Part shown: one piece after another, positions 3,101 to 41,870 of the stretch
Numbering within the stretch: position 1 is the stretch's first letter
Layout of the letters: every line of letters begins with the position of its first letter
Assembly (NCBI RefSeq): GCF_964204645.1
Contig: NC_134025.1
Coordinates: forward strand, 24,024,001-24,088,000
DNA from: Tubulanus polymorphus
Lineage: Eukaryota; Nemertea; Palaeonemertea; Tubulaniformes; Tubulanidae
Direction of reading: 5' to 3'
DNA: 64,000 nucleotides
Position numbers and translations under genes: made by a program
Notes under the pieces: model-generated
Told to the model about the DNA's origin: nothing
Databases searched by the model: none
The model's input: only the letters and a program-made list of their open reading frames with translations

Positions 3101-6100
3101 GTAGCAAGGGTAAGTGGTGATTTGGAAAATATGTGAAGAAGCTGATGGGATAATGTGAATGTTTTGCTTCCATTTATTTACTGTTGTGTGGAGATGTTAT
3201 TGTATCTTTTATGTATTATACTGAGTGGCTTGCACTAATTTTTCAAAGATTTTATGAAATTTTGAGACCAATCTAAACCGATCTGTTTCCAGCCCCCGAT
3301 CAGCAGCCTCCTCCGACATATGCCCATGTTAGTCCCACCCAGCTGCGTATTATGTGGGGCCCACCGGACAATAAAAATGGAGTCATCATTAAATACGCGT
3401 TGATGAGAAATGATAAGGAGATATATGTTTCAAGTATCAATGATACATCTCAAGCCAATACAATTGGTAAGTTGAAAAATCGTCATATAAACAGATAAGC
3501 ATTTGTTCTCGGAATTCATTGAAGTCGAACCATTCAAATCATTAGTTTACATGTACAGGTATGTATAAAAAACATTGTTAGCTATGATTCTCTTTTGTAG
3601 TTCGATCTTATTTGGATACTGGTCTCGAACCATTTACTCAGTACTCGTACTTTGTAACGGCTTGGAATGTGAATGGAAGTGTGAGCAGCCCTACTGTAGT
3701 GGTCGAAACGCTCCCAGGACAGCCAAGCGGAGTATTCTTGCTGAACCTGACACGGATAATGCAAACGTCGGCCTCATTTGAATGGGCGCCGCCTTCAAAA
3801 CCGAATGGATACCTCATCGGCTATACGCTTTATGGACGAGAGCAAGGAAAAACTGTTGCTTCGTCAATGTTATCGACAAACGATACAACTGCAACAGTCA
3901 CTAATCTTGTGCCATTCATGAACTATACATTTGTTCTAGAAGCGTGCACTCATGGGGGTTGCTATAACAGCACACCAACGCAGGGTTTGACTCTCGGAGC
4001 TGCACCAGTGGGTCAGTCAGCTCCAAATATTACGGCTTTCAATAGTACTACGTTGTTTCTAAAATGGGGCCCACCAACGGAACCGAACGGTAATAATCCT
4101 TTAGTATCAAATGTAAAATATTAGCAAATCTATTTTAAATTCCTCATTGCTGAATCAATTTTTATATACATTCATATATAATGGAGGATGGCCTCGTTTC
4201 AGGGATTATCATCTTTTATGAATTATGGAAAAAGGACACCGCTACTGGAACTGCAGAACTGATATTTCATCCAGCTGGCCAATATAACCCACGTCCATCA
4301 ACCACCGATGAAAATGCGTTGCCGCCTCCGGCTACGAATTACACGGTGACTGGATTGAAACCATTCACCGAGTATCACTTCCAGATCCTTTCTCAGAATG
4401 ATAATGGCAAGGCTGCGAGTCCTTGGGTGACAGGGAGAACAGGAGAGGCCTGTAAGTTAGATACCTATAGACACAGTAATATTTATTAAGCAACCAATCA
4501 TCACTCGACTTATATGATACACTTTACAAAGTTAACAAAAAAGCATTATTTGACATACATTCTTTCAATTCTGATTTCCATGGCTGTTTGAATATGTTAT
4601 GTCAAAAATTCATAAAGACTATATCTATTTTTGGTATGGTTTTTATTGCAGCATTACATACACATTGTTGTCTTTTCTTTCATTTCAGTACCATTTTACA
4701 TGCCCATTCCAACCTCAATAGGCATCGATAGCTCGTCCTTACAGATCATATGGACTGCCCCATCAATAGCACAAGCAAATGGTATCATATTACATTTCAA
4801 ACTGTTGGAATTTGTACCCAATAATAAAACTATAGATCCTTTCGGTAAAGATATCATTGAAAAGGTAAGAAGATTCCTTTGAATTTTGCATTAGGATTCA
4901 TTCGGAATACCGCATTGTGCTTAACATGTATATGTGTTGTTCATATTTTCAAGCTTATCGCAACTGTGCCTGCTAATGTCACCAAGTATGAGGTTACTGG
5001 CTATAAGCCTTATAGCGTTCACAAATTCAAAGTCGATGCATGCAACTCAGTAGGTTGCGTGAGCAGTGCTGATTTTACTGGCCAGACCTTCCCATCGGGT
5101 AAGTGACCGGTGAAGAATGAAGTAATGATGAAATGAAATGTAAATGCAATTTGATTCTCATATTTTGCTCAATCATGTTTTCAGCCCCATCGGCTGTGAT
5201 GAAACCAGTTGCTACCGGTTATAATTACTCGACAATGCAGATCAATTGGCATCCGCCTTCAGTTCTGAATGGACCCGACCCATACTATCTAGTTGAACGC
5301 ATGACGATACCTTTTTCAAGTCCTCCACCAGCGGTGGTTCCCGGTACCAGATTTACCGGCGGAGGTTACTATCATTTCCCGAGAACAGTCCTTCCATTTG
5401 ATGTCAGTTTCACTGGTAAGGCGCTCAACAGTATCTGCTTTTCATTGAATTTTTGATCAAATTACGTGAATGATTACGTGCAACATTTTGAAATCTAGGA
5501 ATTCGCATGAAGTTTCGCACGACTGCTCAAAACGCGGCGCTTTTTTATGCATCCACTCAGCAACAAGATGAATTCGTCGTGATTCAGATACGCGACGGAC
5601 GAGTTTGGTTTCTATTCAATCCTCAAGGTAAGAACAAATCCAGTTTGTTTTGTAGATTTTCACCAGTAATCAAATGATATGATATGATATATGTGGTCAC
5701 ATCATTTATACATTAAGAATAACACAAGTCGCGCCCGTCTTTAGTCAATCCAAGCGTTGAAGTAGTACCAAAAATCATGAAAATTAGAGAAAACAGACTT
5801 ACCTTTTTACATCATTTGCAGTATTTTTATTTCGATCACTGTCACCGAACACTTTTTGAATCATTCAGAGGCTTTTTATTTTTAGGTATCCGTATTTTCA
5901 GAAATCATTATCACAGAGATGTGTACATTGGCTTGTTTGTTTGATACGGTACTAATGAAGTGGTCACATATTTTGGTTTAAATCTTGCCTAAAAAACTAG
6001 CCTATCTCTGTTACAGGATTTTTTGAAATCATGATTTCGTTTTCATCAATTCATGAAAAATGAAAATATACTATTTATTTACTAAATGCATGAGAGCTAT

Positions 6101-8585
6101 AAAAAAGGCTAGAATACTTACGTTGAATACTGTTTGATTTAAGTTTAGAGGTATTGATTGTTCTGGGAACCTGACAGCAAAGACTTACTAACACATTTAA
6201 CTAAGAAATGAATATTAGTAGAAAATTTGAATGTGAAGTGTTGCACCATATTTGTCATGTTAGGATGCAACACTGAAGTTGAGATTGATCCTGCAATTGA
6301 TGGCAACAGAACATACTCTGACGGGCAATGGCACTCTGTCCAAGTATATCGGAAAGACTTTGATGGCCAGTTGATAGTTGATGATTTAAAAGGTTAGGCA
6401 ATGAATGATGATGATCATGACGATTTCAACTAGAAAACCTTGAATTGCCATCATCTATATTCAATGCACCTGTTCTGATGTTGCTGTTCAACACTTGATT
6501 GTGTGTGGTCGTGTGGTATACTGGACTGATTAGACTAGATTTGCCGCTTATGCCGCGCTTCGCTGTGATAGAAAAACGTTTTGCCGGTACATGATCGATC
6601 TCTGCAAGAAGCAAAAACTTTGAAAATTTCGGAAAATCCGAATGAGAAATTGAAATTGATTTGACCGCTACCCAGCTTCTGTCGAGATCTCATGAAAGCC
6701 GCTGTTCGCTTGCTAAGTTGCCTTGTCTGGACCCAATTGCACAGTCATTGCATCTTGCTCATTTTGTTTCTAAGTTCCAATGGGAATTTAATAAAACTAT
6801 GGACTTCTGAGCTCATGACTTTGCAACTCGGCCCAAAGCGTTACTGATGTACTAGTACATGGTTAAGATTTTATTTCGCAATTTCGTTTCCGTAGATGTA
6901 TATTCGTTTGATTTCAATCTCACCATTTTCTATACCCTAACAGTAGTTCAATTACACACCAAACTTTTCGTTCATAACATTTCTTCAGTAGGATTGAAGT
7001 TATGGTTTGTTTTATCACTTATTGATGAAGCCTTTAAGTTTCCTTGGTTTTGTTGAGATAGGTCATGATCGATTTTCAGTGCAAAACGACCGTACTGAAA
7101 TGGAACGTGAATTTAATTATTGATTATAAACATAAATGCTTTAATCAAACTTTTAAATTCCAAATTTATTGACATTAAGATATGCTTCCCTATTAGATAT
7201 TACTTTATTTGCGTTTGGGGACGCCTGCTGCGGAGGACTTTTAACACAAAAAATGTCTTGTTTATTGTCACCAAAAAAACAGGATGTGTTTCGTATCTTT
7301 CAATAACAAATGATGAGGGATCACCCCACAATAGTAACCAGTGGTTAGAACTAGAGGCTCGACGTAGTGGGAAACATGGAATAATTTATATGAACAATTT
7401 CAATGGTATGATTTTTACAAGTGTCTAGGAACGTTTATGTGAAAAACCTTTTATTCCTCAGTTTTCTCCAACCTCATTGTACTAATATGAATCCAATATT
7501 TTTGATATTCACCTCATTTTGCAAACTATTTAGTTTGCGCATCAATTAATCAAAAACTAATAACAAATTGTGTATGGATGTAATTTAAACTAGTTTCAAA
7601 ATATGGTGCTTGTAATTAAAATACACATCGATGTCTATTTATGATTATATTTGTTTTTCATATTGAACTAACCACTGAAAGAATGATACATCTAATGCTG
7701 TTGTATGTACTGGTACATTTGTACTAGTTCCCTATGGCGGCCAGTGCTGGGAACTTGCTATTACTAACTAACTGCTTAAATATTGCGCATACTCTATCTA
7801 TAATATCTATGCTTGCTTAGTGGAAATTTCCTTGATTTCATCGATTTCCTTGGAAACAAGATATATTTCCACTATTTGTACCTGCGTTCTTGAGTGTCAT
7901 ATCTTATGGTCTAGCCGAATAAGTATGATTCGATTCTTTTGCCCGATGATCGGCTCTTAATTTTTCTCTGAAGTGACTACCATTAAGACTGAGTATATGT
8001 TTGGGCTACTCAATCAGAATTCATGTAAGTTTAAGGACATAATATTTGTTTTTATCTATTTACCAATGATAATGATGGGCATTAATAGAGTCACTAGATG
8101 AATGAAGCTAGACCATAAGAATAATACAGAACTTTACCTACTCAATTGGTTTCTAATTATGTTATGTCATGTTTCCTGACCAGGATGCGTTACCTTCATC
8201 TCAACCACTGATGATGAAGGTTTACCTTATTCTGACAATGAATGGCACGATCTGTTTGCCTATCGAGATGGCAAATATGGTATCCTTAGACTAGATGATC
8301 TTTGGACAGGTTTGAACATTTGATTCGGTTTGTCTAATCAATAGAATATAATATGCATATATGTGCGTCCGAAAGAGATCACCTCGGCTTCAAAAATTTC
8401 AATTTTACTGATAGAAATATATCATTCGAGTACTCCCTCTGAAAAGCCAGGCTGGACTCTCTGCAAGATCCTTTGCCTTGACCCACTTGTACTTTTGTGT
8501 GCGTGTGTGAGCAGTCTATCTTTGCACTTAAACGAAGCTTATGCAAAATCATTTCAGAGAAAAAAATATATAACATGTATATATC

Positions 8586-8619
<34 letters not shown>

Positions 8620-11600
8620 TGACAACGGAAGATATGATTTTGTATGAAGTTAGCACATCATATATATTTTGACACCGGTGGTATTGGCGTTAATACATGT
8701 ACATTCATTATTCATTTGTTTTGGTGATGGTTCTATTAAAAGGTTGGTGGTTCTATTCATTGTATATATGAAACCTATATGCAAACAATTAATCTGTTAA
8801 TCAGCATAATGTATAATAATGTATTGATCCTTTCGTTCACATGTAATTTGATGGAAATGTCCATAAGACTTTGTTGTATCATTTCCCTTTTAACTTCGAT
8901 TCTTTGCGAAAAATATGAATATCCTTAAAGTAAACAACTGATTTTCATGCACATTTTGTCCATATAATTTTAACATTTTTTGAGAATGGATCGACTTTCT
9001 TCATTTAGGTACAAAAAATCTTTCTTGTACGAAGGGGAATCTTATCGGTGAAAGTACTGGTGTTTTTGTTGGTGGTATTCCAAATACTGTGGAATTAAAG
9101 CAAGACGCAAAGGACCGAAGAGCTCAGGTATTTATCATTCGAAATTCCGTGTTAACTGATACGAAAGTTCCGTGCCATTCATTGAAAAATTGAATTGTTT
9201 ATATTCTGCTTTATTCAGATAATTAAAGATAGCTTTCACGGTTGCATCAAAGATATACAAATTCTTCAGCAAGAATCTCCGGTAAACGTGTGGAGAACGC
9301 TAGACTGGAATTTAGCGATTGATCGAAGGCAGGCGATGCCTGCTTGGGAAGGCTGTCCCGGTATCATGAACATTTCTGCCGTACACTTTCTAGGAACAGG
9401 TAACCTGTCAAGGTATTTTTGGTGATTGTTAATTTTTTTCCTGACGGATACTGTAAGTCTTATTCATCTCTCTTCAATTTCAGGATATTTAACGATTGAC
9501 GTCGAGGCTTTTTCGCTAACTAATAAAAACTTTGTTTTGCGATGGCAAATTCGAACTACGCTTCACTCGTTTTTTGTTTTGTTTATGCATGGAGGTGATG
9601 ACCGGTTTCTTTATCTGCAAGTTAGACAGGGCGCAATGGAGTTTACTGCACGTGGTATCAACACGCCGTCACTGGAAAGTACCAGTCAAATCATTCAGCG
9701 GACGATCACGTGGAACAATTCAGCCGTCAACATCTGCGATGGTTACTGGCATACATTAGAAATCTTCAAATCTGGAGGCCAACTTAGAGCATCTGTCGAT
9801 GGCAAACATGAAGTGGCTGAAGGCAATCCGTCTGACTCCTTTCGGTTTGATATCAAGTCGAATATCTATGTTGGTGCAATCGATGAAAATGATGCTCTAA
9901 TGCAAAGCTATCTGAAGAGGAATAATCTAATAGACAAATTCATGCCGCGTAAGTCATGTTAACCAATTATTGCTCATGAATTTCACTATGTAATGGCTAT
10001 TACTAATCAGAAAATTCGAAGAAAAACTCACATTTATCACGATACAAAATAGCTCATTTCCTGTTGATTTTCATGAATTACATGTTATTTTGTAGTAGAT
10101 AGTCAAGGCTTTCACATAGTATAAGATTTGATGAGATGGGCCGCCAAAATTGTGACCTTCTGACCCCCAAAATTCATCCTGACTTACTTAGATGGAGTGT
10201 TCAGTTTTGTCATGTTCATACCAAAAATACTCGAGAATTTCAAATAGAAAGATGTTGATTTCTGTACAGAATATTGATGCTTGGGTGTCTAGTTTACCTT
10301 AAACTAATGGGTTTGAATCCCACCGTAATCATTTTTGCTTAACACACAAAAAAATAGTCAGGGCGGATTTGGGCGGCTTGAGGAGTAATACTCAGGGCGG
10401 ATTCGGACAGCTCGACGGCTAATAGGTTTATCTGTTAAGAAAACCTAGGTTAGGGCATATCAATATATTTGTCTAAAATCAGTTAATCTTGCTTTTACCA
10501 GCTTTCGGCGGATGCATAAAAGACATGTTCTTGCGAAAGCCGTGGAATTTTGAGAGAATCGCTGCCATGCGAGATGTGAACATGGATGGTTGTCCTCTAG
10601 AATCTGTATTCAATCCCATTGGTTCATGCGAAAATTCCGTCAAAGTTCAAATAAGTAATACGACCAATAATCAGTCATTTGATTATGGACTTCCTGCATT
10701 TTCAGGTAAGTGGTTTTACATCAAGAACACCGGAACTTGGAATTCTTGATATTTTTACCCTGTTCATTGAACGTCAATTAGATCATCTCTATACATCCAC
10801 TGATGTTTTTTATCTTGTATTTTCAGCATATAACTATCGGGTTGTTGCTAGAAATGCTGGAGGAGTATCATATAGTCCATGGACAAGTGGTCGAACGAAA
10901 GAAGGAGGTAAGTTCGTGTCAACAATTAGTTTATGTTTTTAGCTAAATAGTCCATTTTATGCAAACTTCATAAGATTGAATTCAAACCTTGTTTCCTTTT
11001 TGTAGCTCCTAGTGGCGTTTTTGCACCCGTATCAGCAATCTCGAAAACTGGCTACGTTGTTGCTGTTGAATGGAAACCCCCGGTTCGAAAGTCAGGACTG
11101 CTCGCGTCCTATATTCTCAAGTCTTACAATAAAATCAATACATCAATTCCTGCGATTGAAACCGTATTTAAGAATACAGAAATCACGAAAGGGGATATAA
11201 CCAATGCTATTCCTGCTACTAATTACACAATAACTTTAACTGCTTGTACAAATGGTGGATGTACCGAAAGTGATCAAGGAATTGATGTACAAACAAAGAC
11301 TGAAGGTATATTGCTATAATCCTTGAATTTGGATTTTAGAATAGAGATTCCTGTTTTTATCTTCTCTGATGCATTTTTGTAGCCCCCGAAGATGTCCCAG
11401 CTCCTAGAGCGATCGTCGGCCCAACTTTTATGGAAGTTGTTTGGGATAAACCTGGAAAGCCAAATGGAGATATCATTGGCTACTTCTTATATAAAGATAA
11501 TGTTGAAGAATATGCTGGTACCATGCAGAAAAAAGTTCTAATTAATCTTCAGGTACTTATATATCTAAGTAGTGCATTGATCATCATCATCAAAAGTGTT

Positions 11601-14600: not shown

Positions 14601-17600
14601 ACTGAACTTATTGTGGAAAATCTTGTTCCATACACTACTTACTCCATTACGATTATTGCTTGTACCTTTGGTGAGTAATCTGGTACTAGTTTCACAATAT
14701 TTTTTCATAACCTTCGTACACAGATTTGCTGTTATGTATTCTGTTATGTATTCTGTCTAGAGGGTGGTTGCACTGAAAGCTCCACTACAAATGTGCGCAC
14801 AAGCGGTAAAGCTCCAGAAGGCCAACCCGCACCCACTGCCATACCGATCTCACAAGACTACATATCCATTATATGGCGGCCACCAATCAGCCCAAATGGT
14901 CCTAATATTCGTTATGAGCTCTCACGAATGAAAGTCGCACAACCATTGTTAGGTAAGTTCCACATTCGTGTACATTATCAAGTATCAAAATGTATACTGA
15001 GAGTTAAAATTTTTCTCTAACGTTTTGTTGACAGTGCATGATTCATATAATTGCAGCTTCAGTAACAGACCTTGGTATTTGGAAAACGGTTTACACGGGT
15101 ACTGCCAACTCGTATGAAGATCGAGGCCTGAGTTTACTGACAACAAATCAGTACCGCCTTAGTGTTTACAATGATTTTGGATTTTTGAACAGCGCCGAAT
15201 CATCTAACGTGACTACTTTTGGTGGCCAGCCTACCGTACCGGCAAGCTTGAGCATTGCGCCGTTGAGTCACGTATCGATACAACTTCAATGGGTTGTACC
15301 AGGTAATGATAGTTAGATATACGTTTCGTGGTAACGATACTTTAAACCGAAGTAGACTAATGTGAAAATACCTGTATCTAATTTAGGTGTGAAAGAGTTG
15401 CAGGGTTATGTAGAAAAATTTGTCGTTGATATTAGAAGTAGTCATATGAATATCAGTAAGACTTATCCAGGAAATGCAACTAGCTCAATATTAACCGGCC
15501 TTCAACCGAATACGCTGTATAGTTGTCGGATTTCATTGACTATCAATGGAGGAGCCTCAATTACCGGTGATTGGAAGACTACATCCACACTAGATGGAGG
15601 TTTGTTTTCTTTTTTCATTCAGGGGTTGTTAGAGAGAACAGGATCTTAGAAAGCAAAGATCATTTCTTTTGAGTGACAATATTTGCACAAATCATTTACA
15701 TGATACAATATTAAAACTTATTAAGGGCTGCTGAACTTTTGAAAATTGAGAGCTACCTATACTCAGTTCAAATGAAATGGATATACATGTATTTCATTTA
15801 TGAGTGTTGTCTACTGTGCATTTATATATTTACAGCTACTGGCGGTAAGTTCACTGTATAAAGAGAAATGTTAGCATAATGCTAAGTATGATTTCTGTGG
15901 CATAATGGTTTACTCACTCCATTTTATACTTTCCCGACTTTCGCTTGGATTTAATTTGAACCCATCTCATAAATAAGTAATGAAATCGATGAACCCTGCT
16001 CTCGGAATAGCTGCTTCGTAGGAGAAATTTCATTAATAATTCAGTCTTATACATCACCTGTGGTCTGTAACTAGTTAATTATTCAGTTGTACATGAATCT
16101 AAGTTTTAATTAAATTGGCAAATTCCTGTGGCTCGTGAAACTTATCATACATATGCTGCATTCATCATGCTTGAAGTTTACCAAAAATCCAGGGTGTTTG
16201 TGTCAGCATTATTACAGTCATTATTAATGGCTGGTTTGCAGGTAGAAATTGGAGGTATCTGTTATTCATAAGTTGAAATATGCTTATTATGTATGACTTA
16301 AGAATAAGAGCATTTTGTTCACATTCTCATTAAATCTTCCTACATATTCACAGATGCGTCTTTCCTCTTTCAGCTCCAGCTGGTCTTTCTCCACCAATAC
16401 TTCGGGTATTGAGCGAAAACAAAATACGTGTCACATGGGCTGCGCCAACAGTACCAAATGGGCGTATTACAGCATACAATATCTTGGTGGACAACCGGAC
16501 AATTCTCACTAATTCCACAGTTCCTGGTTCTCTTGTTATCGACAAACTGAAACCATACACTGTCTATAATATTAGAGTAAGTATGACTTAAAGAATTACT
16601 GGAAAAGTTACCGGGTATTCGAAAGCGCAATGAATATCTACTGATGGTATTATAACGTTCCAGATTGAAGTTTGTACTATTTTTGCCTGTGTGGAAAGTA
16701 ACGCGACCAAGGGGGTAACTCTTGAGGATATTGCACGGGAGATAGGAAGTCCGAATCTGAGTGTGCGAAATTCCACGGCAATAGAAATAGCATGGACACA
16801 ACCCAAAAGACCAAATGGAATAATCAAACATTATGAAATACATCGCAAAACGCAAATACAGTGTTCTAAAAGGTATCTCCAAAATTCCGGTGAATTATTT
16901 TTGCTCAAATGCTGTCAGATCATTTCATATGCACGTGTATTTTCAAAAAATTTCAGACCCACCCCAACAGCACTACCGATGAAGAAGATATGTACTTATA
17001 TTGAATGTGGAGCTTTGGAAAGTCTGTGCGGAACTCAGTGTTTCACTGGCACAAAGGTATATGTTACATGTTACATGTTCATGTATATTCACATGTACAT
17101 GTACAAGTTGGGATTGATGATATTTCAAATGTAGTATTTGATGTGAGCTTAAAGATTTCACTGACTTATATTTCAGACATGTTGTCAAGATGTTTTGTAT
17201 GACAACAAGCCTAATCACGAATGTTGTGGAACGGCTTACATTCCCAAGAAATCTAGTCCTGATGATATCTGTTGCGGAGGACGTTTCTATAAAAAGATTG
17301 TAAACTATCAGTGTTGTAGTGATAAGTAAGTAAATTAGAATATATTTTTAGACTGAACCAGTGAAATAACTTGGATCTTTACATGTTATGTGAGCACATA
17401 GTACTTGTGCTGAGTTATTTTAAAGTTTTGGTACTTTTTGATTTGAAGGTATGTCGAAGTACTTCCCGGACAGATTTGTTGTCCTGATCTTATTCAGAAT
17501 CGTGTTGATATTGGTTTTGGAAATCGATGCTGTGGATCAATACCTTTTCAGGATAATGGAGCTCAGATCTGTTGTTCAGGTAAAACGCTATCTGCTACCA

Positions 17601-20600
17601 CATTCATCAACTTGGATTGACTTCAAAGCTTTATTCAAAAATGATTTTGATTTTTATCAGGTCAGTTGCATAGTCGATTTGGGAGACAGTGTTGTGGGAA
17701 AGCTATTGTCGATGAAAGTCTTGTTTGCTGCGGAAATTCTGAAAAAGGTGTTACTTTTACAAAGAATTTTGACAATAAATGTTGCGGCAATGAATACATC
17801 ACAAGTAATACCACTATCTGTTGTGTTGATGGAGGGCGAGCAAAGGTATTCAAATGCATGAATTCAGTAGTCTTTTATCAAAGATTATATTTAGTGATTG
17901 ATTTATGTTGATTTACTGTAATTGAACGGAAATTGTCTGTGTTTATTACAGTCTTACACTTATTTAACCGCGGATGCCCTGTTAGCTGATAATCGCAAAT
18001 GCTGTAAGACAGAACTAATCTCTAGTGGTCTTAGTTGCTGTAACTCAGTTGGGTACAATATTGCATCTCAAGTGTGTGCCGATTCGAAAGGTTTGCTTAT
18101 GTTTGAGTTACTTCGAATTAATTGCCGAAGTAGTTGAGTTCCTTTCTTATTTACGAAATATTGTTTGTAAATGGTTATTTATCTGTACAATTTATCATTT
18201 GTAGGCTGTGGAGATGGAACTATTTGCCCCCTGAGTAAGAAATCGCAGGCTAACTGCAATAGATGCGATTTCAATCCATCTGTAAATAGCTGTGGATCAG
18301 TCTCGGGAAATTACATTCCCGGTCCTACTCCGTCACCAACTCCGCCACCAACTAAGTGTTATATCGGCCCAGAGAATGTGTATTCAGGCAGAGACTTTCA
18401 ATTCTTAGGTAAATAAGTAATTTGAGAGGTAAATTGGGTAATATAAAGCAAATGCATGAACCTTCCAATTGACAGCATTTATACTAAATCATCGTGATTC
18501 AATTCATCTTGTAGATGGAAACCTGAGCCCTTATACACCCTATGAATATGTATTGGTTGTTGTTAATGGAGCTGGTAATGGTATGAGTGCTTACAGCTCG
18601 ACGCGAACTGCTCAATCTGCCCCGGAGGGTGTCTTGCCACCGACAGCTGAAGTGAAAAACAACCAGTATGACACAATATACCTTTCATGGAAAATTCCGC
18701 TTCAACCCAATGGTAAAGATGCACCCAGGAATAAGATTTATATCATTCGTTTTTATAACATTAAGGATGAATTTCTATCTACAGTATATAATTGTAATAT
18801 TTTCATCCGCGAATAATCTGTGTATGCATTTTTAGGTGAAATATCACAGTATATATTACTCAGAGGAGGGTTAGAGATATACAGAGGTGCAGCTATGTCT
18901 TATATCGATAATAATGCTATACAACCCTATAAGACATATACATATCAACTCAATGCATGTACTGTAGCCTGCACTTTGAGTTCAATGGTAATGATGGAAT
19001 AATCTTACCGGTAATTTTCTAATTTTTTGGAATGTAATATTGCATAAAACTAATGACCATTCTCCTTTGTTTTAGATATTAGTTGCAACTCTGCAAGCGC
19101 CACCAAGCGGCCTTTCATCTCCAGTTGTCTCGAACATCACATCAACTTCATTTTCTTTGGCATGGCAGCCACCAACAATCCCAAATGGTGTTATCACTCA
19201 TTACCTGATAACTCGATCGGATGTTGGAATAATTTATAATGGGACCAACTTAAAACTTGAAGTTTCAGGTTTGTTAGCTTATTTATTTTCTTAAGTTTCA
19301 ATACCAGTATATGCAATGTGAGATTTTACATAATTGAATGTATTTACCATTTTTAGGTCTGATGCCATATACTTCTTACAGCACATCTTTGGAAGCATGT
19401 TCAGTTGCTGGGTGTACAAAAAGTTTCCCTTCCAACATTTTAACCTCTGAAGCTTTACCTTTGGGTAAGTGAGTCAAAGTAATAGTAATTTGATTTCTAT
19501 ACCTGTGATTTATAGGGTCCAAGCCCACACCAATCTGCACTATATACTCAAATATAAGATGTGATTGGAATGAATTACTTCCATATGAATTGTACTACAA
19601 ACATCAAAGTATTCTATCCCTAATTGTATTCACAGGTTTTGGTACTCCTAGGATAGTAGTCCTGAGCTCCCGAAGCTTAGAATTGTATTGGTCTCCTCCA
19701 GAAGTTCCAAACGGTGTGATTACTAAATACAAGGTTTACCAAACTTCCACTACGATTGGAACTCAAATGATAAGGCAAACACTTGACCACAACATTACTA
19801 TTAGCGGTGTCGTTGCTGGTGCCCAGTATCAATATTTTGTCGAAGCACTAAATAGCGCTGGGGGAATAAATAGTTCAATTATCACTGTCACATTACCGTC
19901 CATGACTCCAGAAGGAATCTCGGCGCCAACAAATATTACTGTTCTCAGCGCATATAGTTTGTTTGTTGAGTGGGCTCCAGTTGCAAAACCGAATGGTGTA
20001 ATCGAACAGTATAAGGTTTTATTAAATGACGGCACTACAGAAATTGTGAAGAGTTTCAGCGGGAATAGCAGCAACGCAACAATCGATGGTTTGAAACCAT
20101 ACACTGAATATGAATTGCGTATTCGAGCGTGTCTTCCAAACATCAACGGATGTGGCACTGGACCAGGTACAATGATAAGAATGGACGAGGCTGCCCCGCT
20201 AGGTCTTATACCACCTACACTCCAGGCACAAAGTGCAACAGTTATTCGCGTAGTGTGGAAAAAACCATCTGCTCCGAATGGCAAAATAACACAGTATTTG
20301 ATTAACAGAAGAAGGTTTGGTGATCCCATTCAGCTAACTATTAATTTGGTAAAAGGCGACGTCTTCAGCTATGTTAACACCGATGTTACCTTATTGCCAT
20401 TCACCGATTATGAATATCAAGTTGTCGCCTTCAATTCTAAAGGATCAATGAAAAGTGCTTGGGCCAGGATTCGTACTCTTCAGACCATTCCTCAGGAAGT
20501 AAATGCACCTCGTATAACTGAAAGTAGTGCATATGGTTTCAAATTAGATTGGGCCTCTCCTACGAAGCCTAATGGAATCATTGTTAAATTCATTATTCAA

Positions 20601-23600
20601 TATCAGGAAATATTCATGGATCCAACGCAGAAAGCTGCTATAAGAAATATATCGGTGGCAAGTACTACCAATGCAACATCTTTCAGTGGACTGAATCCAT
20701 TTAGTGAATACCGCGTTCGTCTCATAGCTGTTAATTCTGCTGGTGAGGGTATTAGCTTCTGGGCGTCTGGAAAAACTGGTGAGACGGCACCTGCAGATAT
20801 TGCAATAATGATAGTGATAAAAAATCCTAGTGGGACCTCACTGAATCTCAAGTGGCAAGTACCAGGCAAACCAAATGGCAATATCAAGCAATATAAGATT
20901 TATGAAGTGGGAACGACAACTCCGATATATACAGGTTTGACTCAAGAATTTGAATACCGACGGTTAACACCTTTCACTGAATATACCATCCAGCTAGAAG
21001 CTTGTAACACTTTAACTGGAAACCTGTGTGGGAAAGGTGGCCCACAGAAGGTTATAACGGCTGAGATTTTGCCGAATACACCTGTTGCTCCGGCATTTGG
21101 TAAAGTGAACGCTACTCATGTTGAAATTCAATGGACACGACCGTCTAAATTAAATGGAAAAATATTAGAATACAAGGTTCTCAGACAGGCGAGTCCAGTA
21201 ACCAACCGCAAGAAGAGATCATTGTCTCAACCTCAGATTGTTTACAGGACAAAGGACACATCTAAGGCAAATAACCAGTTTGTCGATAAGACAGTTAAAC
21301 CATATACTAATTACAAATATCAAATACAGACTTGTAATAGTGTTGGTTGCGTTTCGAGTCCTGTGCAGTCAGTGCAAACACCACAGGCACCTCCCAGCAG
21401 TGTCAGCAAACCAACTGTCCAGCATATAAAAGGTCATCCCGATAAACTGAATATAACTTGGACAGTTCCGACTGAACCGAATGGCATCATACAGGACTAT
21501 AAATTACAACAGAATACATCGGTTCCATTAAGTTTTGGCGCACAGGATCCGAAAGTTTACCAGGACACGGGACTAATAGCTTATACTAAGTATAGTTATA
21601 CAATATCTGTTTGTACACAAGGAGGCTGCACGAAGAGCTCACCAACTCACATTACAACCATGGAAACTCCGCCGTTGCTTGTCACTCCTCCGACTATCGT
21701 AACAATGTCTTCAACAAATCTAAAAGCTCATTGGGTAAAGCCACAAATAACAAACGGACAAATCATCGCTTATCACCTGTATATGAATAATGCGAATGTT
21801 TATTCAGGAATGACCATGGATTTTACGCTGACTAATCTTATCCCGTTCAGGGCCTACACGTTCATACTGTCTGCTTGTACAAACGGTGGTTGTAAAAACA
21901 GTACATCAGTTGTTGGGCGACCGGATGAAGCAGCTCCTCAACGCATGAAAAAACCGAAACTTCAAGTCACCAGTTCAGTATCGATCGAAATTACTTGGAC
22001 TCTTCCGTTAGATCCAAATGGAATTATAACATCCTTTGAGCTTAGGCGAAATGGCACGATAATTCAGAAGACCAATGGTTTTCGATATACTGACTATGGT
22101 TTGACGCCGGGAAAGATCTACGCATACACGGTGACCGTGTATAACAGTAAAGGCAATGTGACTAGTGCAGCTTCCACAGCTACTACATACTCATCGTCGC
22201 CAGAAGGCATTTTACCTCCTCAGCTGACACCTTTATCTTCGGAATCGATCAAGGCTACATGGTCTAAACCTGCCCAGCCAAACGGCAAAATACTCAACTA
22301 CACACTGTTAATTGATGACAAATCTGTCTACACTGGTAATAAAATGACGTACACTGTTTTGGGATTGGCGTTTTTTACCGAGTTCAGATTTTATGTGCGG
22401 GTGTGTACATCTGCTGGATGCACTTCAAGCGGTGAAAATAAAGCCCGTACAAAGGAAGCTTCACCAAGTGATGTACAAAAACCAACGTTAGTTCCACTTG
22501 AAAATATAAATGGTATGCACAATGGAGTACGTGTTCAGTGGAGATATCCTGGTAAACCAAATGGCAATATAACCAAGTATGAGCTGTTCAGAAGAAAAAT
22601 TGAGGCATCTGGTCCAGCATCAGGTACAGACAATATTACTTATGTGTTGCGATAATCAAATTGCAACCTAAATCAATAAGAATTCATACCTTATAATTGA
22701 AAAATTTGTTTCAGGAACTACATATGGACCAGAGTTGAAGATCTATTCCGGGTTACCTTTGAATCTGGAATTTGAAGATAAAGATTCAGTACTGAAACCA
22801 TTTACTGATTATCAGTACAGATTGGTGGCATTTAATAAAGTTGGTCAGAGTAGCAGTGGATGGCAGACAGTTCGTACTCAGGAGGCTCCACCAGCTAGAG
22901 TAGATAAACTTACTATTCTGGTCAGTATTTCCTACATAAATATCTATCATTTTGATATTTTGCTGTATTTTTTTTTGTACTCGCTTTTTTCACTCCTCGA
23001 TCTTATATATTTTCAAGGGGGTGACAGCTACTTCGATCAAAACAGAGGTGCCAATTCCTGATCAACCAAATGGCATTATTCAGACATATGAAATAGTGGT
23101 AGATAGACTTGGAGTAAGTTTCGTTTGCCTTGAAAATTCACCTTAGCTGAATGTTTCAGTATATATGCAACTCATAATGTTTACAGCTTGCCAAGTCAGA
23201 AAATACAACTATAACTGTGAGGAACTTGAACCCATATCAAAATTACAGCATACAAGCAAGAGTTTGTACCAGCGTGGGATGCACAAACAGTCCGCCAGTT
23301 CTTGTCCAAACCAAAAGTGCTCCACCATCAGGACTTTCTTCCGTCGTCGTTTTGGAAACAACAATTACGAGTGCTCTCATTTCTTGGTCAGCTCCTAGTC
23401 GGCCAAATGGTGTAATAACTAGGTAACTGTTCAATTCTGTGTTGATGAAATCGATAGATTCTGATCGACTAGTTTAAGCGTTGTGGTGTTTATTTCAGTT
23501 ATGAGTTGTCATATCGCTTAACCTGCCTTAAAACAAGTAGTGGTGCCTGCACTCATGGTGCCACATATGTAGCAACTAGAGGTTTGGTGCTAAGACACAA

Positions 23601-25978
23601 CATCACAAATCTTCAGACATATTCAAACTATAGCTTTGCAATACAAGTTTACAATGAAGTTGGCCGATCAGAAAAATCAGCATGGGTCGATGCCATGACT
23701 AAGCCTTCTGGTGAGTAAAGAAAGTGATCGTAAAACGTAGATAGATAATGTAAGTGATTATCTTATGGCACATGACATGGAAATTATTGTGGGGTGCTTG
23801 ATTGCTGGTGTTCTATTATTCATCATTCAGTCTATTAACCATACACTTTCTATTCGTTCACATGCAAGAGTTAATGAAGAAATGCGTGACAGCTTGTGAA
23901 AAAATCAGTGCTACACATTTGAGCCTTATGTTTCAACTATCCGTATGTAGCATATGTTTGAGAAGAACAATATAACTTTGCAAGAGTTGCAAATGATTTT
24001 TTATGGGTGGTTTTGATAGCCTAGAAATTCAAGACTTTAGTGTCGTATTCCGGATGTTTGAATGTATTTTGTTATTACTGATTCACTATGGATATTGTTT
24101 TTCTATAGCGCCGGTCATATTGAACCCGCCTGTTATGACCACAAATGGCTCGTTTGTTATCGTCAACTGGAAGAATTCGTTCATTCTGAACGGTGAATTG
24201 TTGGAGTATTTGCTGTACACAGATAACCAGTTAACGTATAGCGGAACTGCTACGTCCGCTTTCGTTGAAAGATCAACTAGAAATCAAAGTAAGAACATTA
24301 AAAACTTTCTCTACATGATGGTTATCTTTTTGATTCATATAGTGCATTCTCCTAGTACCAAAATTGTCATTCTTTACAATGCTATCATATTTTCTACTCT
24401 TTAAGAGTTCAGATTCATGGTACGATGTCGCACAAGACAGGGTATTGCTGATACAAAGTCCGTTGTCTTTGATCCTCAATCACCAGGGAATATAGGTAGG
24501 TTTTCTTATCAATATATAGCGGATCGAATTGATTAGAAATCTATACAAAACACATCACTATGTACTGATTGCGAAGCCCTTCACTCCTTCCTTTATATCA
24601 ATTATTCATAGCATTAAGCTAATTTGACTGTGATGCCGTGCAAAAAAGGAATAAATATACATCAGTATGGTATAATTGGTTCTGAACTGCTCTTGAAAAA
24701 ACTTCCTTTGTTCATGCTGCATCTCTTTGATATGAATAGTTCACTTGATATGAAGAACGATACCAGTGCCATAGGATTAGAATTAACCATTGCCATATAC
24801 AGTCCGATTGATAAGAAACATTTTGAAATGAATATTCATTTGATTGGCGAATGGGGGTACACAGTATTTTTGTTATTTTCCTTACATTATAACATTATCA
24901 AAACCTACTAACGGGAAACAATATCCATTTCCAGGGAGCACAGTCGCGCCACAGCCACCTCTGGCACGTAGCATGCCTTTCTATCAAGAAGTGTGGTTCA
25001 TCGCATTTGTTCTAATCGTCGCGTTAGTTTTGTTGTTCATCGGCATCGTATTTTGTATCAAGTACACGGGAAGAAGTACGCCATTTATCAGAGAACGGGC
25101 ACCGCTTCAGCCTCGACAGGCCATGTCAAATGTGAAACCGGGATATATGCGAGAACAGTATGAAGACAGCTACGTAGCAGTAAGTTTTTGGCGTGTTTGT
25201 CTTGTCTAATCGAAACTATATTTGGAGGATCAATACTTGTGCTTAGAGCATTCCTCATGGAAATCAGTTTAAAGCTAGACTATTCATTGTCTTCCCCAGA
25301 GACATATTCTGGTATCTGAATTGTTGATACATGAAGAAGTCCCACATTTCAAATTTCATACGATAGAATTTATCAAAATAGAACCACAAAATTTTGTCAG
25401 TTTTCGTCAGTCATCATCAGGTGGAATGTTAGTCAACAGCCGAAACGTTGTGGTTTAATTTTGATAAATTCTATCATATAAAATTTGTATTGTGGGACTT
25501 CTTCATTTATCAACAGTTTACACGGATTAGAGTGTTTTATTTGACTACTAATCTGAAATGTTTTTCGTATATTTTTTAGGATAATCATAGACCAGATAGT
25601 CAAGCTAGTATAATAAGCGCTGGTAAGCTTCACCCCGGCTATGTGAATCCTGCATTCGCGACGGTGCGTTCCAGTCGTCCGAACAGTGTACACGATCTGA
25701 CATTTGATCACCGGTCGCAAAAATCGTCAAAATATATGAGCGACGATGAAGATGATCTGATTTGGTCCGGGCAGGTTCCATATGACAGCGGTATACATAA
25801 TTTAACCGTAAGTAGATTCATGTTCTGTCTTCATTTCATCGTTTTCTTCATGGATATCACTGATTACAAAATTTGATGTTTATTTCAGTTTAATGCATCC
25901 GAGGACTACGGACCTAGTGAAAATCAACCATACAGTATAGCCACTAAAGAACAACTTTTTACCGATACACATCTATGA
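1..25978 (+). CDS. USH2A: Usherin (USH2A orthologue), 5'-truncated by window edge
   Basis: Large multi-exon gene for a giant extracellular-matrix/stereocilia-link type membrane protein. Read in splice order the product has: end of the laminin N-terminal domain, about ten laminin-EGF repeats, four to five FN3, two LamG, many FN3, a region with thirteen CC pairs, more FN3, one membrane helix, and a tail ending DTHL then TGA at 25976-25978. This order matches vertebrate usherin throughout. About 60 exons can be followed by GT-AG borders, most of phase 1, so most domain exons can be skipped in frame. Signal peptide, the first LamG-like domain and most of LamN lie left of the window. In vertebrates usherin forms the ankle-link/periciliary complex with ADGRV1, whirlin and harmonin; an invertebrate role (sensory cilia) is inference. 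Exon borders are read by eye and a few may be off by one or two bases. Confidence 0.96.
297..3109 (+). other. USH2A: USH2A laminin-EGF repeat array
   Basis: Exons at about 297-390, 504-830, 913-1108, 1232-1888, 2354-2540 and 2946-3109 encode about ten repeats with the laminin-EGF pattern (C-x-C, GxCxC, GxxCDxC, GC). The exon 1232-1888 carries several whole repeats in one block. Motifs such as GGGGVC, NDKPF and NPYGCSK fall where vertebrate usherin has similar words. In laminin-type proteins these repeats form a stiff rod next to LamN. Confidence 0.92.
1981..2308. mobile_element. MITE-like element in USH2A intron
   Basis: The intron between 1888 and 2354 contains terminal inverted repeats: TATAAGTTGGATTATAGAT near 1983 and its imperfect complement ending in TAATCCAACTTATAA near 2307. 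The interior has two direct copies of GTGATTGGAGAGGGG about 50 bp apart. No coding capacity. The size of about 330 bp fits a non-autonomous DNA transposon; no clear target duplication was seen. Confidence 0.55.
3293..5415 (+). other. USH2A: USH2A first fibronectin type III block
   Basis: Exons about 3293-3466, 3601-4089, 4203-4451, 4689-4864, 4954-5098 and 5185-5415 encode four to five FN3 domains. Each shows the W-x-x-P strand, the PNG turn (for example PPDNKNG, PSKPNG), and the L-x-P-x-x-x-Y core followed by ACTxGGC, typical of usherin FN3 units. They separate the laminin-EGF rod from the LamG pair, as in vertebrate usherin. Confidence 0.92.
5499..5627 (+). other. USH2A: USH2A LamG-1 constant exon (5' half)
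   Basis: Exon after TCTAG at 5497-5498, ending at donor GGTAAG. It encodes the first beta strands of LamG-1 (MKFRTTAQNAALFY, then EFVVIQIRDGRVWFLFNPQ) and ends in phase 1. It is followed by three alternative-looking versions of the next exon (6264, 7283, 8184), each beginning and ending in the same phase. Confidence 0.88.
6264..6392 (+). other. USH2A: USH2A LamG-1 alternative exon version a
   Basis: 129 nt, phase 1 in and phase 1 out, acceptor GTTAG|GA, donor G|GTTAGG. It encodes 43 residues beginning GCNTEVEIDP, with TYSDGQWHSVQVYRKD in the middle and a final VDDLKG. This is the LamG segment that vertebrate usherin encodes once (there with YSDGKWH). It is paralogous to 7283-7405 and 8184-8309. 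Confidence 0.85.
7283..7405 (+). other. USH2A: USH2A LamG-1 alternative exon version b
   Basis: 123 nt, phase 1 in and out, acceptor ACAG|GA, donor G|GTATGA. It encodes GCVSYLSITNDEG, then SNQWLELEARRSGKHG and a final MNNFNG. It aligns across its whole length with versions a and c. The usual W-H pair is W-L here, so this version is the most diverged at that site. The polypyrimidine tract is weak (ACCAAAAAAACAG), which fits regulated use. Confidence 0.75.
8184..8309 (+). other. USH2A: USH2A LamG-1 alternative exon version c
   Basis: 126 nt, phase 1 in and out, acceptor GACCAG|GA, donor G|GTTTGA (weak). It encodes GCVTFISTTDDEGLPYSD, then NEWHDLFAYRDGKYG and a final DDLWTG. It is closest to version b in the first third and has the W-H pair of version a. 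All three versions have lengths divisible by three and stay in frame with the constant exon at 9009. Confidence 0.82.
8579..8617. repeat. (TA)n microsatellite
   Basis: Near-perfect alternating T and A in the intron after alternative exon c. Probably polymorphic in length. Confidence 0.9.
9009..9399 (+). other. USH2A: USH2A LamG-1 constant 3' exons
   Basis: Two exons, about 9009-9127 and 9219-9399, close LamG-1. The first gives STGVFVGGIPNTVEL, the second SFHGCIKDIQI and WEGCPG, the usual LamG ending with the C-I-K-D strand and a final disulfide. The second ends in phase 1 at donor GGTAAC. Confidence 0.88.
9484..10705 (+). other. USH2A: USH2A second LamG domain
   Basis: Exons about 9484-9948 and 10502-10705. 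Strand and turn words typical of LamG are visible: LRWQIRTT, FVLFMHGGDDRFLYLQV, CDGYWHTLEI, SNIYVGAI, then FGGCIKDMFL and MDGCPLES. Only one version of each exon is present, unlike LamG-1. The intron 9949-10501 has no feature I recognise apart from a short duplicated AGGGCGGATT-x-GG motif near 10360-10410. Confidence 0.88.
10827..16872 (+). other. USH2A: USH2A second fibronectin type III block
   Basis: About 25 short exons (for example 10827-10907, 11006-11305, 11383-11552, 11655-11784, 11864-12054, 12135-12282, 12398-12712, 12804-12983, 13080-13230, 13323-13465, 13550-13686, 13830-13965, 14053-14349, 14449-14670, 14761-14952, 15057-15302, 15387-15599, 16374-16576, 16664-16872) encode roughly a dozen FN3 domains. 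Repeated words are KPNG/SPNG/QPNG turns and ACT-x-GGC. Many domains are split by an intron in the middle, right after the PNG turn or just before AC-x-x-GGC. Confidence 0.92.
15836..15844 (+). other. USH2A: Candidate 9-nt in-frame microexon of USH2A
   Basis: CTACTGGCG is bounded by a good acceptor (TATTTACAG) and a consensus donor (GTAAGT). The flanking exons end and start in phase 1, so inclusion would add exactly three residues (A-T-G) between two FN3 domains. It lies in a 774-bp intron (15600-16373). Splice signals alone support it; transcript evidence is lacking. Confidence 0.45.
16957..18408 (+). other. USH2A: USH2A cysteine-rich CC-pair region
   Basis: Exons about 16957-17056, 17177-17325, 17449-17579, 17661-17845, 17952-18090 and 18205-18408 encode a region between FN3 domains with about thirteen CC pairs (TCCQD, ECCGT, ICCGG, QCCSD, ICCPD, RCCGS, ICCSG, QCCGK, VCCGN, KCCGN, ICCVD, KCCKT, SCCNS). 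It ends with NRCDF and a short TPSPTPPPT linker. Vertebrate usherin has a matching cysteine-rich insertion in the same position. The function of this module is unknown; dense disulfides suggest a compact rigid spacer. Confidence 0.9.
18476..24495 (+). other. USH2A: USH2A third fibronectin type III block
   Basis: About fifteen FN3 domains. Exons are about 18476-18712, 18836-18987, 19076-19268, 19357-19464, 19636-22623 (one very long exon), 22715-22920, 23018-23113, 23187-23422, 23499-23710, 24109-24288 and 24406-24495. The last exon precedes the membrane stalk. The sequence keeps the PNG and ACTxGGC hallmarks to the end. Confidence 0.92.
19636..22623 (+). other. USH2A: USH2A giant uninterrupted exon (about 10 FN3 domains)
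   Basis: A single 2988-nt exon, phase 1 to phase 1, preceded by CACAG and followed by GTACAG. It encodes about 996 residues and ten FN3 units, while exons elsewhere in this gene are 80-500 nt. Inside it, 21207-21218 encodes R-K-K-R, a basic stretch matching the furin consensus R-x-K/R-R, in a loop of one FN3 unit. Confidence 0.93.
24935..25978 (+). other. USH2A: USH2A membrane helix and cytoplasmic tail with PDZ ligand
   Basis: Exons 24935-25179, 25580-25807 and 25889-25978. The first has a stalk, then VWFIAFVLIVALVLLF as the core of a single membrane helix, then basic residues and FIRERAPLQP, matching the juxtamembrane word in vertebrate usherin. The tail ends FTDTHL followed by TGA; DTHL is the class I PDZ ligand that vertebrate usherin uses to bind whirlin and harmonin. 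The middle of the tail is divergent and rich in S, D and E. Confidence 0.94.
25323..25514. mobile_element. Foldback/MITE in USH2A intron
   Basis: A 192-bp element in the intron 25180-25579. Its arms of about 65 bp are inverted copies: GTTGATACATGAAGAAGTCC on the left pairs with the end of GGGACTTCTTCATTTATCAAC on the right. The centre has GTCAACAGCCGAAACGTTG. A related piece in the opposite orientation lies near 35730-35790, so this is a dispersed family. Confidence 0.75.
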
Positions 25979-32020: not shown

Positions 32021-34661
32021 ATGCAACCGCTTATTTTACTACTAGGGGTAAGCCTGAATTTGACAACCATGATTCAATTTGAAATCGGACAGAAATACTT
32101 AGTACCGTAATCAATTTTACATTGCAGATTTTGATCGCGGGTAAGTATAGACTCGTTTATTTTTTATCATGTACCCTCATTTTGATTGAAAATATCAAAA
32201 AGATTAAAATTCGTCTAAATTATTAAAGAAATCCGAAATATATTTCTGTGTTGTATGTTCAGGCATTGGGGCCGCAGTCGATGAATCGCGGATTCAGGTT
32301 TGTGATAATTTGTCAAACTTAAAATCTTATTTGGAACTTGGCCTTTCTATTTAAGCTTCATTCAAACCTTTCAGAAACGAACGGCCGCGATAAGATATAC
32401 GCAACAACGATGGCCACTAGGCATCGTGCCTTACATACTGACTGGGTTCAGTGAGTTGAGTTCTAAAAATGTGCATCTTTAGGTCAAAATGTTCTTAAAA
32501 TCATTTCTAGGAATGTATTTAGAAATAACCTGTAGTATGTGTTAAATCGTGATAAAAAGTAGAAGACTACATAATAAAGGTCAATCGAATTTTCATAGCC
32601 GACGTAACACGTTCATAAAAAAATTATGAGGGAATCTGTATGCCCTTATAATTCTTTTATGATTACGCGACTGATTCATTAAATCATATATAACTGATAT
32701 ATTTCAGCGGAAAACCAAAAAGCTGCGATACAGTTGGCTATTAATGAACTAGAAACTGAGTTGGGGCCAAGATGCGTGCGATTTGTACCGAAAGACAATC
32801 AAGTCGATTACCTTAACATGAAAAATTCTCCGGCTAAAAAGTAAAAGAAGTTTTCACGAAAAAATATCGATTCCCAAATCTAAAACATAGTCACTCCAGC
32901 AAATAAATTATTATGGAAATGAAAAATTTGAATTTGAAGGTGTGGATCTGTGGTAGGAATGACGGGGAAGGAGCAAATAACAAACTTCGCTGCGACTTGC
33001 GTAGATGGTCTTCATCAAGGACTCATAAAACAGCAATTGTTGACTGTTTTGGGCATGAAACCCGAACATCGGCGACCCGATAGAGATAAATACGTGACGA
33101 TCATTACCGACAATATCGACCCAGGTATATGATCCAATGTGAAAATAATCCTATATTTCTTATTAGAATAATCTCCATCATTCTTTGGGTGAGTGGATTA
33201 CAGAAATGAAATTTGGAAATGCTAGATTTTCTCTTCATTATAATTTTTTCACTTTACCTGAAATGTTATCACCCCTTTTATATCTTGAATTTGACATCAA
33301 GCGCAAACATACAGATTTCGTAAGGATCCGAGCGTCGAAACGTTTGGTCTACCATACGATTACGATAGTCTTCTACATTTCTCCGAGACGCAATTCGCCA
33401 AGTCAGTTGGGCTGAAAACGATGGTTCCGATAAAAAGTGGCGTAACGATCGGTCAGAGAACTCACCTGAGCAAATACGACATTCAAACCATTCACAAAAT
33501 GTACAACTGCGGAGGTATCTATCGTATCATTAGGTTAAAAATTGATACCTTGTTTCTCCTAATCGGCCGGGTAATATGGTAAATTGTAATACAATGTTTC
33601 TGTACAGCTCGTTTCTATAGCTGCTGGGTCTGTAATGGTTAGCTTGATCGTGATTTTTAAGCAGCCAGCCGGGTCAACTCAGCACAGATGAGAAACACGG
33701 TATAATTTTTAACCTTAGACGGAGTTAGATTCTTAGAGCGATATTAAACTTTCCCGTTGGAGAAGTCTTCTATTACACGTGGATGAATATTTCTTGTACA
33801 ACATCTGACCTCGTTTTACAAGATTCGTTTTTTCCTCCGTTTTCCTCATTTTTCTGATTGTAGGGGATATCAATTTCTTCTGCAACTTTTCGGCTAATGC
33901 ATGTGGATTCAGACCAAGACCTCCGGGTGACCCCCTGCGATGGAAACGACTGTTGGCACCGTCACCAAGCGGCCCACCAAATGACCACACTGGAGATGGT
34001 ACGGATATGGGTTCAATTCACCCAAGTTTTCGAGTGTCTGTTTTTAATACATAAAATTCACGGATAATTGCAGGGCTCTATATGGGTATCGATATGACCG
34101 GAGAACAGAGAGGAGCGGGCGGAGCGCTACTATCTACAGAACTACCCAAAAGTGATAAAGGATATTGTATTACATTCTGGTGCGTGCGAAGTTCGATTCT
34201 TTCAAATGTACATATGCAAATATCATTTTCAAAGATTTCCAATATTCCTCTATAATTCAGGTATTACAGATATTCCAAGACTGAATTGACTTCCTGGGCA
34301 CCAATAGTTGCGTACAGAGCGAAAGGATTTGTGAAACTGGGTCAGGTAGCCTCCCTTACACACCGAGATAACTACCCATTAAACTGGATCGTATCCAAGA
34401 ATCATTTCACATGGCCATCCGACTCTGGGGTATCTATTATTTTGATATATCGTTTATCACCAGGATATCCTAAATTAAAAACCCTTCATACATGCACTTA
34501 GTTCTTTTATTTTCTTGATCCTATAACTGATGGCTATGCAATTGAAATTCGTTTTACATTTTCACCAGCTATTGCTGTACGCCATGGTCTCTGGAGGGTT
34601 CTACGGTCACAAGAATTTTGCAATTGACGACATCAGCATACAGGAAGCGTCCACCTGTTAA
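32021..34661 (+). CDS. Secreted pseudo-astacin with MAM domain, copy A
   Basis: Eleven exons: 32021-32047, 32128-32140 (13 nt), 32263-32297, 32375-32450, 32708-32840, 32940-33124, 33302-33514, 33864-33998, 34074-34179, 34261-34429, 34569-34661; 394 residues. Order: signal peptide (MQPLILLLG then ILIAG), a short stretch ending RIQKR, an astacin fold (RWPLGIVPY, RPDRDKYV, GLPYDYDS), then a MAM domain ending FAIDDISIQE. The zinc motif HExxHxxGxxHE is replaced: QQLLTVLGMKPEH aligns on it, so all three His and the catalytic Glu are gone. The Met-turn is SLLHF. The four astacin cysteines (RCVRF, KCGS, TCVD, YNCGG) remain. It is therefore predicted to fold but not to cleave; a binding or scaffold role is inference. 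AATAAA at 34687 may end the transcript. Confidence 0.86.
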
Positions 34662-37982: not shown

Positions 37983-38192
37983 TGGGGTTTGGGGAGGGTG
38001 GATAGGGTTGGGGGAGGGAAGGGGTAGAGGGAGGGCGGGAGGGAAGGGTTGAGGGAGGTTGGGAGGGATGGGGTGAGGGAGGTTGGGAGGGAAGGGTACG
38101 GGAGGGTGGGAGGGAAGGGGTCCGGGAGGGTGGGAGGGAAGGGGTGAGGGAGGGCGGGAGGGAAGGGGTCCGGGAGGGTGGGAGGGAATGCC
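37983..38192. repeat. G-rich minisatellite, left block
   Basis: Units of GGGAGGGAAGGGG with TCCGGGAGGGTG or TGAGGGAGG. Strong potential for G-quadruplexes on the plus strand. Related to 41480-41870. Confidence 0.9.
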
Positions 38193-41479: not shown

Positions 41480-41870
41480 CGTGGGAGGGCATTAAGGGAG
41501 GGCATTGAGGGAGGGCATTGAGGGAGGGCATTGAGGGAGGGAAGGGGTCCGGAGGGCGGGAGGGAAGGGGTCCGGGAGGGTGGGAGGGAAGGGGCGAGGG
41601 AGGGCGGGAGGGAAGGGGCGAGGGAGGGCGGGAGGGAAGGGGCGAGGGAGGGCGGGAGGGAAGAGGCGAGGGAGGGCGGGAGGGAAGGGGTCTGGGAGGG
41701 CGGGAGTCAAGGGGTGTGGGAGGGAAGGGGCAAGGGACGGCGGGAGGGAAGGGGCGAGGAGGGCGGGAGGGAAGGGGTCTGGGAGGGTGGGAGGGAAGTG
41801 GTCTAGGAGGGCGGGAGGGAAGGGGTCTGGGTGGGGGGAGGGACGGGGTCTGGGAGGGTCGGGTCGGGAG
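41480..41870. repeat. G-rich minisatellite, right block
   Basis: About fifteen units of GGGAGGGAAGGGGCGAGGGA type. It creates long open frames in several phases (Gly/Arg/Glu or Pro-rich), which are artefacts of the repeat. It points the same way as the left block although the flanking arms are inverted. Confidence 0.9.

What the first reader, a model, noticed from the sequence alone, without database searches (positions are those of the whole stretch)
6264..8309. Three tandem in-phase copies of one LamG exon in usherin: predicted mutually exclusive splicing
Exons at 6264-6392, 7283-7405 and 8184-8309 (129, 123 and 126 nt) all start and end in phase 1 and encode the same stretch of LamG-1, aligned on GC-x-x-x, the (Y/N)S(D/N)xxW core and a final G. 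Vertebrate usherin has this segment once, between strands matching the constant exons 5499 and 9009. Including two or three versions would duplicate part of a beta sandwich, so one-of-three choice is the likely use. That would give three usherin LamG surfaces, a Dscam-like way to change ligand binding, which I do not know to be described for usherin.
Basis: partly seen in the sequence, partly recalled or inferred. Interest (0 to 1): 0.9.

Follow-up and report, generated by a model that had tools for sequence, protein, structure and literature searches.

The report
Three interchangeable usherin LamG exons
An animal usherin gene (usherin is the giant adhesion protein behind Usher syndrome) carries three old, still-functional versions of one exon that can each complete the same ligand-binding LamG domain, which points to an unverified one-of-three splicing switch on the face that neurexins also vary by splicing.

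Summary
Exons 6264-6392, 7283-7405 and 8184-8309 are open, phase 1-1, flanked by AG/GT, and the only copies in the genome. The gene is a usherin orthologue by architecture, ending in FTDTHL. Each exon alone completes one LamG domain; skipping splits it and joint inclusion inserts about 80 extra residues. None looks like a dead copy: b and c differ as constrained coding sequence does (omega about 0.1; no simulation with a neutral b reproduces them). The case for a is weaker and rests partly on position, phase and a shared Cys. Each exon adds one Cys to three constant Cys, so one choice gives an even number. The four introns are among the longest in the gene. The segment covers the loops where neurexin inserts SS2 and SS3 sit (PMC6856630). 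One-of-three splicing is likely but unshown: I had no RNA data or relatives, found no docking/selector pairing above shuffles, and frame, intron length and spliceosome type do not enforce exclusion; acceptor b is weak. A new member of a known kind (mutually exclusive homologous exons).

The parts
5185..5415 (+). constant exon: end of FN3 and start of LamG-1 (no Cys)
5499..5627 (+). constant exon just upstream: LamG-1 first half (...DEFVVIQIRDGRVWFLFNPQG)
6264..6392 (+). variable exon a, 129 nt, phase 1-1 (CNTEVEIDPAIDGNRTYSDGQWHSVQVYRKDFDGQLIVDDLK)
7283..7405 (+). variable exon b, 123 nt, phase 1-1 (CVSYLSITNDEGSPHNSNQWLELEARRSGKHGIIYMNNFN); weak acceptor CACCAAAAAAACAG
8184..8309 (+). variable exon c, 126 nt, phase 1-1 (CVTFISTTDDEGLPYSDNEWHDLFAYRDGKYGILRLDDLWT)
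5628..6263 (+). intron upstream of a, 636 nt (gene median 91.5 nt)
6393..7282 (+). intron between a and b, 890 nt
7406..8183 (+). intron between b and c, 778 nt
8310..9008 (+). intron downstream of c, 699 nt
9009..9127 (+). constant exon downstream (TKNLSCTKGNLIGESTGVFVGGIP...); its single Cys is the candidate partner of the variable-exon Cys
9219..9399 (+). constant exon: end of LamG-1 with the canonical Cys pair (HGC...EGC); the start of 9218 used is one base early

Best explanation
This is a cluster of three homologous, in-phase alternative exons in the first LamG domain of a usherin orthologue. The spliceosome most likely joins the constant exon at 5499 to one of a, b or c, and that one to the exon at 9009. 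This would give three usherin isoforms that share the LamG-1 frame but differ in about 41 residues covering the loop after the 'FLFNPQG' strand, the W(H)xx strand, the next loop and the following strand. By comparison with neurexins, this should alter which partner LamG-1 binds, or how tightly. Shown: anatomy, completeness of each single-choice domain, constraint on b and c. Inferred: one-of-three choice, the extra disulfide, the change in binding. Unknown: how exclusion is enforced. Frame, intron length and intron type do not do it, so regulated choice by RNA-binding proteins, or an intron pairing I could not detect from one species, would be needed.
For: Each single-exon version gives one uninterrupted LamG (PF02210 79.7, 62.7 and 69.4 bits); exon skipping gives a split match (45.2) and a-b-c joint inclusion an interrupted one. 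All three versions match the same neurexin and laminin structures over the full length. b-c: aa identity 42%, codon positions 1+2 64%, position 3 30%; best omega about 0.1, with lnL worse by 6.4 at 0.5 and by 12.5 at 1.0. A neutral b branch gives 0 of 1000 matches by similarity score at every setting, against up to about 7% under constraint. a-c: omega 0.05-0.1 best, 4.4 lnL better than 1. Constant LamG-1 exons hold 3 Cys and each variant exactly 1. Cluster introns are 636-890 nt against a median of 91.5, p about 4e-5 for all four being so long. No stops, and GT-AG throughout. The cluster meets the published mutually-exclusive-exon criteria of similar length, same phase and splice sites, and homology (PMC3228551).
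Against: No RNA evidence of any kind. All exon lengths are multiples of 3, so joint inclusion or skipping is not punished by frame. Intron-intron pairing sums are within the range of dinucleotide shuffles. Acceptor b scores below all constant exons used as yardstick, although it has a pyrimidine-rich stretch further upstream. Codon-usage coding scores of a and c are in the low range, and b's is below all tested constant exons. In human RNA-seq only 1,399 of 6,541 candidates were validated as mutually exclusive (PMC5740500), so the anatomy alone is not proof.
Confidence: 0.72

Rival explanations
1. The three exons are alternative but not strictly exclusive: they work as separate cassettes, sometimes skipped or joined, with single-choice messages only the commonest.
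For: Every combination keeps the frame. No competing structure was found. Weak acceptors on a and b suit regulated cassette use.
Against: Skipping or doubling breaks the LamG match. Skipping leaves 3 Cys and double inclusion 5, an odd number either way.
Confidence: 0.15
2. One exon (a or c) is used almost always; the others are rarely used relics.
For: Exon b has the weakest acceptor and lowest coding score of all exons scored and lacks the His of the W-H motif. a-b similarity is saturated.
Against: b kept an open frame, both splice sites and conservative substitutions through saturated third-position divergence; a neutral b branch is not compatible with b-c. Very recent loss of use cannot be excluded.
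Confidence: 0.1
3. All three exons are included together, giving an enlarged LamG-1.
For: Frame compatible.
Against: It would put three copies of the same strands in one beta sandwich, with three Cys facing one constant partner. No solved LamG matched here has that.
Confidence: 0.02
4. Assembly error or collapsed paralogues.
For: None found.
Against: Single locus, no N, no second copy in the assembly. The copies are 37-53% identical in DNA and their introns share no long direct repeats.
Confidence: 0.01

Closest known systems
Neurexin LNS splice sites SS2 (LNS2) and SS3 (LNS4)
   Same: Alternative splicing changes the same loops of the same fold. The 3r05/3qcw difference in LNS4 falls at the start of the variable exon (that this is SS3 is from general knowledge), and SS2A (inserted after Q378) falls between the two strands in its middle (PMC6856630). 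SS2 inserts change neurexophilin affinity about 6-fold.
   Different: Neurexins add or omit short inserts in loops; here a whole 40-42-residue stretch of strands and loops would be swapped for a homologue.
Insect Dscam1 and similar mutually exclusive exon clusters
   Same: Tandem homologous in-phase exons, each coding the same part of an adhesion-protein domain.
   Different: Three exons in one cluster rather than dozens in four; no docking or selector pairing detected; exclusion not shown.
Vertebrate USH2A isoforms
   Same: Same gene by architecture; usherin is alternatively spliced (short isoform a, long isoform b, and an inner-ear exon 71 form; PMC8417766).
   Different: The isoforms described there differ by truncation or an added 24-residue peptide; no LamG exon choice was found in the papers searched.

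Membership tests
Mutually exclusive exon cluster | similar exon lengths, same phase, same splice-site type | tested here: met
   129/123/126 nt, phase 1-1, GT-AG
Mutually exclusive exon cluster | sequence homology among the exons | tested here: met
   b-c z=13.9; a-c z=7.0; a-b z=5.1 against shuffles; a is only at general LamG level
Mutually exclusive exon cluster | each exon coding under selection | tested here: met
   b-c omega about 0.1, neutral b rejected; support for a is weaker
Mutually exclusive exon cluster | one and only one exon per mRNA | not testable with these tools
   no RNA data
Dscam-type RNA-structure-controlled cluster | one docking site complementary to several selectors | tested here: inconclusive
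   no signal above shuffles in a single species; conservation could not be used
Usherin (USH2A orthologue) | LE repeats, FN3, two LamG, many FN3 | tested here: met
   Pfam on exons in order
Usherin (USH2A orthologue) | transmembrane segment and C-terminal PDZ-binding motif | tested here: met
   WFIAFVLIVALVLLFIGIVF read from about 24993-25052...FTDTHL*
Usherin (USH2A orthologue) | closest relative is vertebrate usherin by phylogeny | not tested
   no vertebrate usherin sequence available

The most novel reading that the evidence does not exclude
Usherin in this animal lineage makes three LamG-1 surfaces by tissue- or stage-regulated choice of homologous exons, a swap of the neurexin SS2/SS3 face by whole-segment replacement. 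Usherin-based adhesion would then have an isoform code.
Probability: 0.45. Interest if true: 0.7.

Novelty: new member of a known kind. Interest (0 to 1): 0.55.

Why it matters
The ligands of the usherin LamG domains are poorly known. A natural set of three versions that differ in one face would point to the binding surface and give ready-made constructs to test it. It would also show that LamG domains outside neurexins are varied by splicing at the same rim, by swapping homologous exons rather than by inserting short loops.

Tried and rejected
Docking/selector search among the four introns: sums within shuffles, best docking -71.7 in intron a-b against a shuffle mean of -67.6 (sd 3.5; 22 shuffles); a 16-bp helix flanking exon c (7961-7976 with 8549-8564) is not unusual by energy. 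Steric exclusion and U2/U12 incompatibility were rejected: introns are 778-890 nt between variants, and none of the GT-AG donors resembles a U12 donor. Distant branch points were not supported: AG-free stretches are 25, 47 and 54 nt. Frame-based exclusion was rejected, as all exons are 3n. A crude gene-finding script over-predicted badly and was used only to help place exons. Species identification failed: no COX1 hit, no 18S hit, an error on the Rfam search, and no paper with this genome size. Intronless LamG hits elsewhere in the genome proved to be neurexin- and laminin-like, not usherin copies (named by reading).

Full report
The observation. The three exons are at the stated coordinates. 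They run 6264-6392, 7283-7405 and 8184-8309, all open in one frame only, all entering and leaving in phase 1, with AG before and GT after. Every exon end that could be joined leaves a G, and every start begins GA or GT, so any join makes Gly. A profile of the three finds nothing else in the window on either strand, searches of the 267.8 Mb genome with a and b return only this locus, and there is no second haplotype copy.

The gene. It is a usherin orthologue by architecture: laminin-EGF repeats, FN3, LamG-1 in the exons studied, LamG-2 at 9484-9948, long runs of FN3, a transmembrane segment (read) and a C-terminus FTDTHL. This is the order given for human usherin isoform b in PMC8417766. No tree was made, because no vertebrate usherin was available. 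The species was not identified.

Each exon completes the domain. Constant exon 5499, one variant, 9009 and 9219 give one continuous Pfam LamG for each variant (79.7, 62.7 and 69.4 bits). Leaving the variant out splits the match (45.2 bits), and joining a-b-c inserts two surplus copies. All three match neurexin and laminin structures from end to end.

None looks like a relic. Between b and c the amino acids are 42% identical, codon positions 1 and 2 64%, third positions 30%. The best omega is about 0.1, and the likelihood falls by 6.4 units at 0.5, roughly the value expected if one copy were fully constrained and the other neutral. In simulations with b neutral and c constrained, none of 1000 runs at any setting reached the observed similarity score with such third-position divergence; with b constrained up to 7% did. 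For a the evidence is weaker: a-c favours omega near 0.05-0.1 by 4.4 units over 1, but a-c similarity is within the range of unrelated LamG domains. That a belongs to the same duplication rests on position, phase, boundaries and the G-C start, which the other LamG domains of the genome in the alignment lack. These tests use about 40 codons and one genome, so the figures are approximate.

Why one of three. Constant LamG-1 exons contain three Cys: the HGC and EGC pair usual for LamG and one in LSCTKG. Each variant adds exactly one, at its first residue. One variant gives four Cys; none gives three, two give five. A disulfide between the variant and LSCTKG is inferred, not shown. The four introns around the variants are 636, 890, 778 and 699 nt, against a median of 91.5 for 40 other introns, of which only one is as long. 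Long flanking introns are common for alternative exons (general knowledge). The cluster meets the criteria of Pillmann et al. for mutually exclusive exons (PMC3228551), who found that only 0.56% of other exons on the fly X chromosome share those features. In human RNA-seq, however, 1,399 of 6,541 candidates were confirmed (PMC5740500).

What is missing. There was no RNA evidence. Frame, intron length and intron type do not enforce exclusion. Pairings between introns are no stronger than in shuffles, which in a single species is a weak test. The acceptor of b is weaker than that of all constant exons used as yardstick, though it has a pyrimidine-rich stretch further upstream. This may mean regulated use, rare use or recent decline.

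What it would do. In the alignment with neurexin 1-alpha, the variant segment runs from just after the strand ending FLFN to just after the next-but-one strand. The neurexin insert that distinguishes 3r05 from 3qcw in LNS4 (SS3, by general knowledge) falls at its start. The SS2 insert, after Q378 in LNS2 (PMC6856630), falls between its two strands. SS2 alters neurexophilin affinity about sixfold (same paper). A swap of this segment in usherin should therefore change ligand binding. That is inference by homology; the ligands of usherin LamG-1 are not known to me.

Verdict. The mechanism is likely but unproven. Its kind is known; its place in usherin and its swap of a whole rim segment were not found in the papers searched, a library that lacks most subscription papers.

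Noticed in passing
16957-18408: A Cys-rich stretch of several exons inside the FN3 run of usherin (CCQDV..CCG..ICC repeats) that weakly matches Pfam Galaxin_repeat, below its cut-off.
   Followed up: partly
32263-34429 and 48951-50862: Two near-identical exon sets, by reading astacin-like protease plus MAM, about 16.6 kb apart: a recent tandem gene duplication.
   Followed up: no
38006-38229 and 41514-41870: Low-complexity open stretches of Gly-Arg-Glu repeats (GREGRGEGG).
   Followed up: no
19636-22623: One 2,988-nt exon codes about ten FN3 repeats without an intron, in a gene otherwise cut into short exons with introns of about 90 nt.
   Followed up: no
7961-7976 and 8549-8564: A 16-bp complementary pair, one G-U, in the introns on either side of exon c; not unusual by energy here but worth checking for conservation.
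   Followed up: partly
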